Source of the DNA: Oscillospiraceae bacterium
GTDB taxonomy: Bacteria > Bacillota > Clostridia > Oscillospirales > Oscillospiraceae
NCBI GenBank assembly: GCA_009777235.1
Contig: WRMH01000004.1
Location: 1-64,000 of the forward strand
DNA length: 64,000 nucleotides
Direction: 5' to 3'
A program made the position numbers and the translations under genes. Positions 52,657-55,329 of the stretch are shown here, piece by piece. The notes under the pieces are model-generated. The model was given only the letters and a program-made list of their open reading frames with translations. It searched no databases and was not told where the DNA came from. Every line of letters begins with the position of its first letter. Within the stretch, counting starts at the first letter, position 1.

Positions 52657-53016
52657 ATGGCCAGAATTAAACGCGCTACTGTTACGAGAAAGAGAAGAAA
52701 AAGAATATTAAAATTAGCAAAGGGATATTGGGGAGCAAAATCAAAGCACTTCAAATTAGCAAATCAAGCGGTCATGAAGTCCTTAACCTACGCCTACACC
52801 GGCCGCAGATTAAAAAAGAGGGATTTTCGCAGACTGTGGATTACAAGAATAAGCGCAGCGTGCAAGGCAAATGATATAAACTATTCACGTTTTATGCACG
52901 GTCTCAAGCTCTCGGGCGTAACACTAAACCGCAAAATGCTCTCCGAGATGGCGATACATGAGCCAAAAGCGTTTACAAAACTTGTCGGCGTGGCAAAAGA
53001 CGCAATCAGCGCTTGA
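52657..53016 (+). CDS. rplT: 50S ribosomal protein L20
   Basis: 119 aa, full length. MARIKRATVTRKRRKRILKL, KGYWGAKSKHFKLANQAVMK and RRDFRRLWI-type segments (RDFRRLWITRISAACK) identify it. It binds 23S rRNA early in assembly and represses this operon through the leader. AAAAGGAG precedes the ATG. Its stop overlaps the next start. Confidence 0.97.
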   Translation: MARIKRATVTRKRRKRILKLAKGYWGAKSKHFKLANQAVMKSLTYAYTGRRLKKRDFRRLWITRISAACKANDINYSRFMHGLKLSGVTLNRKMLSEMAIHEPKAFTKLVGVAKDAISA

Positions 53017-54416
53017 GTTCGTTTGTGAAAGTGTTTTTTGCCGTACTATTATGTAAGATACTTTATTTTACGGGTAAGCTCGTCGGAAAAGGCAGCAGCT
53101 TACCCGGTAAAATTGTGCTCAAAATATTTCCCGATATACTCGCCGGGCTAAAGCTGCCCGAGATAATTATTGCCGTGACGGGCTCAAACGGCAAAACGAC
53201 GACCACGGAACTGATCACGTATATTTTAAAAGCCGGCGGTATGAAAGCGGCCTACAATCACGAGGGTTCAAATCAAACGGAAGGCATTGCCACGCTTCTT
53301 TTGCGCGTGGCTTCTTTTTGCGGAAGAGTAAAGCCGGATGCTATCGTTATGGAGTGTGACGAACGCTACTTGAAAAAGATTTTTGAGAAAGTGCGCCCGT
53401 CGGCACTCCTTGTGACAAATCTATGCCGCGATCAACTGACGCGAAACGGGCACCACGAGTTTGTCAAAGATTGCATAAGCGAAGCCATTGAAGCTGCCGG
53501 TCATGATATGAGGCTTATCCTAAATGCCGATGACCCCTATGTCGCCTCGCTTGCGGCAGACAGTCAAACATATGCAAAAGATGTGCTATGGTTTGGCATA
53601 GAGGGCGAACACAAAAATCCCGAAAGCCGCGATAAAATCATTGACAACGACAAGCCCGAAGCTCAGGGCAAACCCGATTTTGGCATGTATGACGACGGAG
53701 CATTTTGCACCGTATGTAAGGAACGTATGGAATATACATACCGTACTGCGGGGCATTTTGGCGATTTCGGCTGTACCTTATGCAATCTGAAACGCAAAAA
53801 CCCCGATATAGAAGCACAGATAAAAAATGACGGAACACTTTTGTTTTCAGAGGGGGCAAAGCTGCGTATGCCGCTGCCGTCCATAACGGCGGCATATAAT
53901 CTTTGTGCGGCGGCGGCAGCGTCAAAAACGGCAAATATCGCCATTTCTGACGCGGTAAAGATACTTGACGGGTATGAGCTTAAAAGCGGAAGAACTGCCG
54001 TGTTTTCACTCGGCTCGCGCAAAGGGCTTTTGCTGATATCGAAGCATGAAAACTCATTTGCGTACAATGCGTGGCTCAAATGGATAAGCCGCAAAGATAA
54101 GCCTTGCACCGTTATCATTTTGGTTGATTCCATAAGCCGCAAATATTACACCTGTGAAACCTCATGGCTTTGGGATATAGATTTTAATTTATTGGCCTGT
54201 CAAAACGTAGTCAATGTGGTGCTTGCCGGGCAATATGTCTATGATTTGGCAACACGCTTTGCAATGACGGATATTGCGCCGGAAAAGATGGGATATGTAA
54301 CTGACCTAAAAGATTTGCGGGAATATGTACAAAAAAATACAATGGGCGATATATATACCCTCACATGCTTTGCGGATAAGGCAAAGCTGAAAAAAGTGTT
54401 TAGGCAAACCTTTTAG
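53013..54416 (+). CDS. MurT-like Mur ligase with zinc ribbon and degenerate triad loop
   Basis: 467 aa. Mur-ligase fold: an N-terminal hydrophobic stretch, ATP loop VTGSNGKTTTTELI (55-68), NADDPYVASL, and a MurT-specific zinc ribbon with Cys 232, 235, 254 and 257. The C-terminal DUF1727 region ends around TSWLWDIDF (383-391). Canonical MurT amidates lipid II D-Glu with GatD, and an Asp in the loop before this TSWxWD completes the glutaminase triad. Here that loop reads KYYTCETSW, so the Asp is not conserved, and RDQLDRYGE has become RDQLTRNGHHE. Starts at TTG 53013 overlapping rplT; GTG 53025 is an alternative. Followed 118 bp later by the GatD-like gene. Confidence 0.82.
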   Translation: MSSFVKVFFAVLLCKILYFTGKLVGKGSSLPGKIVLKIFPDILAGLKLPEIIIAVTGSNGKTTTTELITYILKAGGMKAAYNHEGSNQTEGIATLLLRVASFCGRVKPDAIVMECDERYLKKIFEKVRPSALLVTNLCRDQLTRNGHHEFVKDCISEAIEAAGHDMRLILNADDPYVASLAADSQTYAKDVLWFGIEGEHKNPESRDKIIDNDKPEAQGKPDFGMYDDGAFCTVCKERMEYTYRTAGHFGDFGCTLCNLKRKNPDIEAQIKNDGTLLFSEGAKLRMPLPSITAAYNLCAAAAASKTANIAISDAVKILDGYELKSGRTAVFSLGSRKGLLLISKHENSFAYNAWLKWISRKDKPCTVIILVDSISRKYYTCETSWLWDIDFNLLACQNVVNVVLAGQYVYDLATRFAMTDIAPEKMGYVTDLKDLREYVQKNTMGDIYTLTCFADKAKLKKVFRQTF

Positions 54417-54534
54417 GCAAGGCAAAAAAGCGTTCAGGCAAAGCGTCTTGATAGGGCGATAAGAGAAAAGCTGTTTTGGGATTTTAGAAATTGTGGACTA
54501 TGAACTGCGGACTATGGATTATGGGCGGGATATT

Positions 54535-55329
54535 ATGAAAAAGTCAAGAAAAAACATTAAAATATTGCACCTGTATTATGACTTGATGAATCTTTACGGT
54601 GATTGGGCAAATGCCGCCGCTATGGCGCGGGAGCTTAGTTGTCGTGCCTGCGATGTGGTTATCCACAAGAAAAGCGTCGGCGATGACCTAAATTTTTCCG
54701 AATATGATTTTATCTGTGTCGGCAGCGGTACGGAACACAGCCTGATTGCCGCCATGCGCGATTTGGCAAAGCATAAAAAATCGCTGATAAGGCAAATTGA
54801 AGAGGGGACTGCGGTACTGGCTACGGGAAACTCTCATGAGCTTTTTGGCAGCAGAGTTATTGACCGGAACGGAAATCGGCATGAAATGCTTGGGCTTATT
54901 GATTTTGAAACAGTGCAAGAGGGCGCTCGCATTACCGGCGACTGCATATGCGAGGCTTCGTTTTTGAACGGGCGCGATAAACCCGGCAAAAACGGTGAAC
55001 AAGGCAAACAAAATAAACCCGATGAACCCGTCATCGGCTTCATTAACCGTGCAAAAGGCGTTCAAAACGGAGATATTAAAAGGCCGTTTTACGTCCGGCC
55101 GGGCAAAGGAGCAAATTTCAAAGCCCACAGTGAAGGTATTATATACAAAAACCTGCTGGGAACATATCTGACAGGTCCGATTTTGGTGCGAAACCCATTG
55201 CTGCTTGAGTATTTCGCAAGCCTTTTGACAAAAGAATATGACGGGGATAAACATAAATCCGACGATGTTTTTTTCAAGTATCAAAAAAAGGCTTACGAAG
55301 CCGCAAAAGCCGCTCTTGGCGGCAAATGA
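54535..55329 (+). CDS. GatD-like protein lacking the catalytic Cys and His
   Basis: 264 aa from ATG 54535 (GGCGGGA upstream). The class I glutamine amidotransferase fold of GatD is clear: LYGDWANAAAMA, LIRQIEEGTAVLA, LGLIDFET, GFINRAKG, EGIIYKNLLGTYL and the closing P-NP segment. The nucleophile block, normally LAICGGYQLLG, reads LATGNSHELFG: the Cys position is Gly98. The catalytic His of TYLHGPLLPKNP is Thr213 in TYLTGPILVRNP. The fold is kept but the glutaminase cannot work in the known way. It may be a scaffold or use another ammonia source. Confidence 0.85.
   Translation: MKKSRKNIKILHLYYDLMNLYGDWANAAAMARELSCRACDVVIHKKSVGDDLNFSEYDFICVGSGTEHSLIAAMRDLAKHKKSLIRQIEEGTAVLATGNSHELFGSRVIDRNGNRHEMLGLIDFETVQEGARITGDCICEASFLNGRDKPGKNGEQGKQNKPDEPVIGFINRAKGVQNGDIKRPFYVRPGKGANFKAHSEGIIYKNLLGTYLTGPILVRNPLLLEYFASLLTKEYDGDKHKSDDVFFKYQKKAYEAAKAALGGK

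What the first reader, a model, noticed from the sequence alone, without database searches (positions are those of the whole stretch)
53013..55329. MurT/GatD-like pair that has lost the glutaminase catalytic triad
The GatD-like protein aligns without gaps at the nucleophile block but has Gly98 for Cys (LATGNSHELFG versus LAICGGYQLLG) and Thr213 for the catalytic His (TYLTGP versus TYLHGP). The MurT-like partner has KYYTCETSW where canonical MurT carries the triad Asp. Three positions lost across two adjacent genes, with the folds preserved, point to coordinated repurposing rather than random decay. Known function of the intact pair: amidating D-Glu of lipid II. This pair might use free ammonia, ligate something else, or act as a regulator.
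Basis: partly seen in the sequence, partly recalled or inferred. Interest (0 to 1): 0.8.

Follow-up and report, generated by a model that had tools for sequence, protein, structure and literature searches.

The report
Glutaminase-dead MurT–GatD cell-wall enzyme pair
Two neighbouring genes encode a cell-wall enzyme whose nitrogen-supplying half has lost its catalytic residues yet is conserved across many related bacteria, pointing to an old, working enzyme with a different nitrogen source or a different product.

Summary
The observation largely holds. The GatD-like protein (ATG 54535, stop 55329) has Gly98 for the nucleophile Cys and Thr213 for the catalytic His. The MurT residue is Asp to Glu (E382), a conservative change. 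It is neither error nor decay: of 210 MurT/GatD pairs classified, 117 are of this dead type, and all sampled dead rows fall on one side of trees built without the diagnostic columns (bootstrap 99). Omega is low. The clade shares new ligase residues: Arg after the Mg-binding Asp-Glu, Asn and His in the active-site loop, an insertion in the Lys-Asn loop. ATP, Mg and acceptor-Asn residues and the glutamine-capturing Arg are kept. In 150 family genomes none was seen with both types (51 dead, 36 canonical). S. aureus GatD C94G, the same substitution, keeps NH3-dependent lipid II amidation at pH 8.5 but needs GatD present (literature). I read it as a glutamine-independent Mur-type ligase with GatD kept as structural partner, most likely using ammonium on the same carboxyl; a different amine remains open. 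I saw no printed description in my searches.

The parts
53013..54416 (+). MurT-like Mur ligase (467 aa; TTG start overlapping the rplT stop)
54535..55329 (+). GatD-like protein with the class I glutamine amidotransferase fold but without catalytic Cys and His
54823..54834 (+). Former nucleophile elbow, T97-G98-N99-S100 (Sa I93-C94-G95-G96)
   Evidence: Gly at the Cys position in 98% of 52 deadE and 100% of 48 deadN rows
55171..55173 (+). Thr213 at the catalytic His position (Sa His189)
54156..54158 (+). MurT Glu382 at the position of Sa Asp349, the third triad residue
54042..54053 (+). [quoted passage not shown]
   Evidence: 2-residue insertion in 52 of 52 deadE and 48 of 48 deadN rows, 0 of 81 canonical rows; partly definitional, see full report
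53364..53366 (+). MurT Arg118 directly after Asp116-Glu117 (Mg-binding by homology)
   Evidence: Arg in 108 of 117 dead rows; not among the 80 of 81 canonical entries listed
53445..53453 (+). MurT N145-G146-H147 in the active-site loop (canonical Y/F-G-E)
   Evidence: Asn in 113 of 117 dead rows against 2 of 81 canonical; His in 103 of 117 against 0 of 81
55416..56018 (+). Neighbouring polysaccharide deacetylase, also found beside sister-type pairs in the genus
   Evidence: Pfam PF01522; shared neighbour cluster

Best explanation
An old, conserved subclass of MurT/GatD that has given up glutamine hydrolysis. MurT stays an ATP-dependent Mur-type amide ligase that activates a carboxylate, most likely still the alpha-carboxyl of D-Glu in a lipid-linked peptidoglycan precursor. 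GatD stays as the obligatory structural partner at MurT's interface and gate. The nucleophile comes directly from the cytoplasm, most likely ammonium/ammonia, captured by the remodelled vestibule and active-site loop. Shown here: loss of Cys and His, one clade in the sampled trees, low omega, retained ligase residues, remodelled MurT loops, mutual exclusion with canonical pairs in one sample of 150 genomes. Shown in print for S. aureus: GatD C94G keeps NH3-dependent amidation at pH 8.5, and GatD must be present. Inferred: acceptor, nucleophile, complex formation in this organism.
For: Residues. One clade with diagnostic columns removed: 63 dead rows of 104 on one side, SH-aLRT 99; 32 of 59 rows, 99/95, 98% of 200 bootstrap trees. 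Median omega 0.176 over 28 dead GatD pairs against 0.156 over 35 canonical. Kept in deadE and deadN MurT at 89% or more: Sa K59, N85, E108, D110, E111, R298, K315, N316 and the gate residues R133 and acid 198; the third gate position, Asp355, is an acid in nearly all (deadE D 100%, deadN D 87% and E 12%), and 349 is Glu in deadE. Adjacent MurT-GatD order in 116 of 117 dead pairs. Exclusion: 0 of 150 genomes with both, 51 dead, 36 canonical. DeadN pair of G011 (L252) has the same two flanking genes as deadE pairs of G002 and G006. Literature passages: PMC3266927, PMC6085368, PMC5871853, PMC6113224.
Against: S. aureus used NH3 only at pH 8.5, not at pH 7.5. Free-ammonia use alone does not obviously require the new ligase residues: 12 Cys-less pairs have no insertion, none of them has the Arg or the His and 1 of 12 has the Asn. 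Loops thought to contact lipid II are also changed (DNxADG to SRKYxTSET; GAN to EGSNQ in deadE). Asp349 is Asn in deadN. Ammonium transporter presence is not significantly linked to the dead type (32 of 51 against 16 of 36, p 0.13). The exclusion test is not corrected for kinship.
Confidence: 0.45

Rival explanations
1. The ligase now joins a different amine (an amino acid or other small amine) to the same carboxyl or a related one. The old GatD pocket, with its Arg kept and a new acid, is reused for binding, and no ammonia is made.
For: Type-specific MurT residues at the nucleophile and acceptor side: K(HE)N insertion, Arg after Asp-Glu, Asn and His in the active-site loop, SRKY and EGSNQ stretches in deadE. 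Sa Q98 is acidic in dead GatD (E 94% in deadE; E 83% plus D 10% in deadN) and R128 is kept. DeadE and deadN differ in the inserted residues. Competition for one carboxyl would also give mutual exclusion.
Against: The negative gate and interface residues are largely kept, as for an ammonium path. MurE of the window's genome carries DNPR (recalled as the meso-DAP type), so no unusual stem peptide is indicated. No gene for supplying another amine was seen among the window's neighbours that I scanned with Pfam.
Confidence: 0.3
2. GatD is a ligand sensor: an amino acid, perhaps glutamine, binds the Arg128 pocket without being cut and gates MurT activity.
For: Arg128 in 100% of 52 deadE and 93% of 48 deadN rows. 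Arg128 binds glutamine in S. aureus GatD (PMC5871853 passages). Human CPS1 keeps an inactive glutaminase-like domain and takes ammonia from outside (PMC4655335 passages).
Against: Tyr17 and the oxyanion positions are changed in part of the clade; Arg128 is Val in some deadX and deadN rows; no binding data.
Confidence: 0.12
3. A ligase for a substrate outside peptidoglycan.
For: The acceptor-side loops are altered.
Against: Exclusion with canonical pairs and different types in one genus; a polysaccharide deacetylase stands beside both subtypes in the genus.
Confidence: 0.1
4. Non-functional relic or sequencing artefact.
For: 5 of 18 other same-genus genomes gave no GatD match, although some of these assemblies are incomplete, so the pair may be dispensable.
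Against: 117 concordant pairs, low omega, open frames, new invariant residues.
Confidence: 0.03

Closest known systems
MurT/GatD lipid II isoglutaminyl synthase (S. aureus, S. pneumoniae, S. pyogenes)
   Same: Two adjacent genes, same folds, the four Cys of the zinc ribbon, P-loop, Mg and acceptor-Asn residues, glutamine-capturing Arg
   Different: No nucleophile Cys, no catalytic His, remodelled active-site and Lys-Asn loops, triad Asp replaced
S. aureus GatD C94G laboratory mutant
   Same: Same substitution at the same position; NH3-dependent amidation persists, and only with GatD present (PMC3266927 passages)
   Different: His189 and MurT Asp349 intact; ligase unmodified; active with NH3 only at pH 8.5
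Human carbamoyl phosphate synthetase 1
   Same: Inactive glutaminase-like domain retained; ammonia taken from outside (PMC4655335 passages)
   Different: Another ligase; Cys to Ser; N-acetylglutamate activation at a C-terminal domain
Archaeal MurT-like without GatD
   Same: MurT homologue in genomes without a glutaminase partner (PMC11915815 passages)
   Different: GatD gene not found there; present and conserved here

Membership tests
MurT/GatD lipid II isoglutaminyl synthase | MurT and GatD homologues adjacent | tested here: met
MurT/GatD lipid II isoglutaminyl synthase | GatD Cys94 and His189 for glutamine hydrolysis | tested here: not met
   Gly98 and Thr213
MurT/GatD lipid II isoglutaminyl synthase | MurT Asp349 completing the triad | tested here: not met
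   Glu382, conservative
MurT/GatD lipid II isoglutaminyl synthase | MurT ATP/Mg residues (K59, T60, E108) and acceptor Asn85 | tested here: met
MurT/GatD lipid II isoglutaminyl synthase | Four Cys of the zinc ribbon in MurT | tested here: met
   zinc itself not tested
MurT/GatD lipid II isoglutaminyl synthase | NCBIfam equivalog score cut-offs | tested here: inconclusive
   Far below (148.9 of 800; 91.7 of 450), but the four canonical proteins tried also fail
MurT/GatD lipid II isoglutaminyl synthase | Amidates lipid II D-Glu | not testable with these tools
   needs biochemistry
Class I (triad) glutamine amidotransferases | Fold | tested here: met
Class I (triad) glutamine amidotransferases | Catalytic Cys and His | tested here: not met
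Mur ligase superfamily | Mur middle domain with GxxGKT P-loop, and C-terminal ligase domain | tested here: met

The most novel reading that the evidence does not exclude
A large unrecognised class of cell-wall ligases in which a dead GatD has become an amine or amino-acid binding subunit and MurT joins that amine, not ammonia, to the D-Glu alpha-carboxyl, with deadE and deadN subfamilies using different amines; it could supply unknown ligases for D-Glu substitutions in peptidoglycan.
Probability: 0.28. Interest if true: 0.85.

Novelty: new variant of a known kind. Interest (0 to 1): 0.62.

Why it matters
D-Glu amidation by MurT/GatD is reported essential in several Gram-positive bacteria (PMC6085368 passages) and linked to cross-linking and to masking from innate immune sensing (PMC10484409 and PMC11132681, search listings only). 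A type at least as common as the canonical one in the window's family sample (51 against 36 of 150 genomes), without the glutaminase, breaks the assumption that a murT-gatD locus means glutamine-dependent isoglutamine. It makes testable whether an amidotransferase can naturally turn to ammonia or change nucleophile while keeping its dead partner.

Tried and rejected
Rejected: random decay and sequencing error. Rejected as far as the assembly goes: a second intact pair in the genome. Rejected: Cys loss being one event in all pairs; the 11 Cys-less rows without the insertion that entered the tree (7 Closs_H, 4 dead_noins) lie among canonical rows in several places.

Led nowhere: the ammonium transporter association (p 0.13). 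FemAB is rarer with dead pairs (5 of 51 against 13 of 36, p 0.006), but kinship is uncorrected and I draw nothing firm from it. NCBIfam cut-offs do not discriminate. Neighbour clusters beyond the genus were too mixed to suggest a pathway; most of those neighbours were not annotated. Literature searches listed no paper on a natural dead GatD; I judged by titles, abstract starts and the passages named, and searches returned mostly unrelated papers (25 and 15 listed of 113,431 and 46,052), so this absence is weak.

Full report

The residues. Gly98 and Thr213 stand where S. aureus has Cys94 and His189. PMC5871853 (abstract and passages) reports C94A, H189A and R128A as totally inactive in glutamine deamidation, so glutaminase activity is very unlikely here (inference). 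The MurT triad residue Asp349 (PMC6113224 passages) is Glu382. In a sister subfamily it is Asn, and D349N severely reduced activity in S. aureus (same passages).

Relatives. 29 of 60 relatives' genomes have a GatD match; 95 of 150 family genomes have MurT_C; GatD-profile matches occur in 97 of 394 genomes of the order and 132 of 398 of the phylum sample. Of 240 loci held, 210 were left after requiring both genes and removing repeats: 81 canonical, 52 deadE (window type), 48 deadN, 17 deadX, 7 Cys-less with His, 5 Cys-less and His-less without the insertion. I call the 117 of deadE, deadN and deadX 'dead'; at least two of them (L010, L012) are cut off before the His position. Of the phylum hits I held only 28 loci and 20 regions, for 132 genomes with matches; the 20 were taken mainly among low scorers, so the phylum rows understate the canonical type. 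20 further regions came after that count (classified).

Shared features of the 117 dead pairs, with definitions told. The groups were defined by the residues at Sa 94, 189 and 349 and by the insertion, so the insertion is partly definitional: of all 129 Cys-less pairs 116 have a 1-2 residue insertion in the Lys-Asn loop, 12 have none and 1 has no data; of 81 canonical pairs none has it. Not used in the definition: Arg after the Mg-binding Asp-Glu (108 of 117), Asn for Tyr/Phe in the active-site loop (113 of 117 against 2 of 81), His for Glu (103 of 117 against 0 of 81). Of the 12 Cys-less pairs without insertion, 0 have the Arg, 1 the Asn, 0 the His. PMC6085368 (passages and one section) says that this loop lies at the GatD interface, may form the ammonia channel, and lacks the His of other Mur ligases. 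In deadE the acceptor loop GAN is mostly EGSNQ and the DNxADG stretch is replaced by SRKY(F/Y)T(S/G)ET in most rows shown.

Kinship. With the diagnostic columns taken out, the 63 dead rows of 104 fall on one side of a branch (SH-aLRT 99); in a careful tree of 59 rows the split has 99/95 and occurs in 98% of 200 bootstrap trees. The trees hold samples: 30 and 16 canonical rows (S. aureus counted), not all 81. L213 and L003 are long rows. Cys loss without the ligase change lies in several places on the canonical side. By recorded origin, dead pairs occur in 13 of 14 pair-bearing genomes of the genus (counting the window's own), elsewhere in the family, in eight other families of the order, in two further families of the class, in one genome of the phylum outside the class with a divergent pair, and in a named Bacilli MAG (L003).

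Selection. Nei-Gojobori omega is low for dead GatD (median 0.176, 28 pairs) and dead MurT (0.184, 78 pairs), near canonical values (0.156, 35; 0.134, 18). The pairs are not independent, some genome pairs are counted twice, and some synonymous distances are near saturation.

Exclusion and replacement. Of 150 family genomes, 51 have dead pairs, 36 canonical, 0 both, 63 neither (the 63 include 3 with canonical-side Cys loss and 5 with MurT alone); Fisher p 2.8e-8 without correction for kinship. One short MurT_C fragment (G141, contig 16) was not classified. Genera g56 and g64 have one sampled genome of each type, and the window's genus has deadE, deadN and one canonical genome. The deadN pair of G011 (L252) lies between a deacetylase and a secreted-looking gene without Pfam match, near infC and rplT, as do the deadE pairs of G002 and G006; the flanking proteins are homologous (45% to that of G002; deacetylase 51% to the window's). 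In the window the deacetylase is on the same strand downstream and the second flanking gene is absent. Types that were not seen together, and subtypes that take each other's place, suggest the same role or competition for the same carboxyl (inference).

Mechanism. PMC3266927 (passages): GatD C94G lost glutamine-dependent but kept NH3-dependent amidation at pH 8.5, none at pH 7.5, and MurT without GatD was inactive with any donor. This shows why a dead GatD would be kept. The MurT gate residues named in PMC6085368 are largely kept (Sa R133, 198, 355; an acid at 349 in deadE; the conversion from S. pneumoniae to S. aureus numbers is mine). GatD R128 is kept in deadE and most deadN, and Sa Q98 is replaced by an acid in most rows, which would suit a cation or an amino acid (inference). 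My main reading is ammonium; the new ligase residues leave a different amine open. The window genome's only over-cut-off MurE has DNPR, recalled as the meso-DAP type.

Tests that did not help: AmtB (32 of 51 dead, 16 of 36 canonical, p 0.13) and FemAB (5 of 51, 13 of 36, p 0.006) in what appears to be the same draw of 150 genomes.

Novelty. My searches of the held library listed no description of a natural glutaminase-less MurT/GatD clade; the last two were poorly aimed. PMC11915815 (passages) describes MurT-like without GatD in archaea. Of the papers cited I saw passages, of PMC6085368 also one section, and of PMC10484409 and PMC11132681 only the search listing. Position numbers with 'Sa' follow the S. 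aureus chains.

Noticed in passing
L055, L058, L120, L168, L173, L225, L227, L228, L232: Pairs outside the dead clade or of canonical make-up that have lost the GatD Cys (some also His) with the MurT Lys-Asn loop and Asp349 unchanged: apparently independent losses, natural candidates for plain ammonia users (L228 was not in the tree).
   Followed up: partly
L064, L066, L078, L082, L086, L263, L264, L265: MurT genes (Asp349 and KN kept) with no GatD found in the fetched stretch; G034, source of L263, has a GatD with Tyr at the His position on another contig (L017).
   Followed up: no
L223, L231, L233: Long-branch group in small genomes with degenerate MurT (Asp-Glu and Lys-Asn motifs lost in L223) and Cys-less GatD.
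   Followed up: no
L275: GatD of G424 matched in two pieces; MurT beside it has KHEN with Asp at 349.
   Followed up: no
window 56794-57490 (-): PIN-domain gene with a Phd/YefM-like gene upstream, resembling a toxin-antitoxin pair (the antitoxin match is below the Pfam cut-off).
   Followed up: partly
window 57605-59770 (-): 721-aa Cys-, His- and Trp-rich repetitive protein with an N-terminal hydrophobic stretch and no Pfam match at 0.001.
   Followed up: partly
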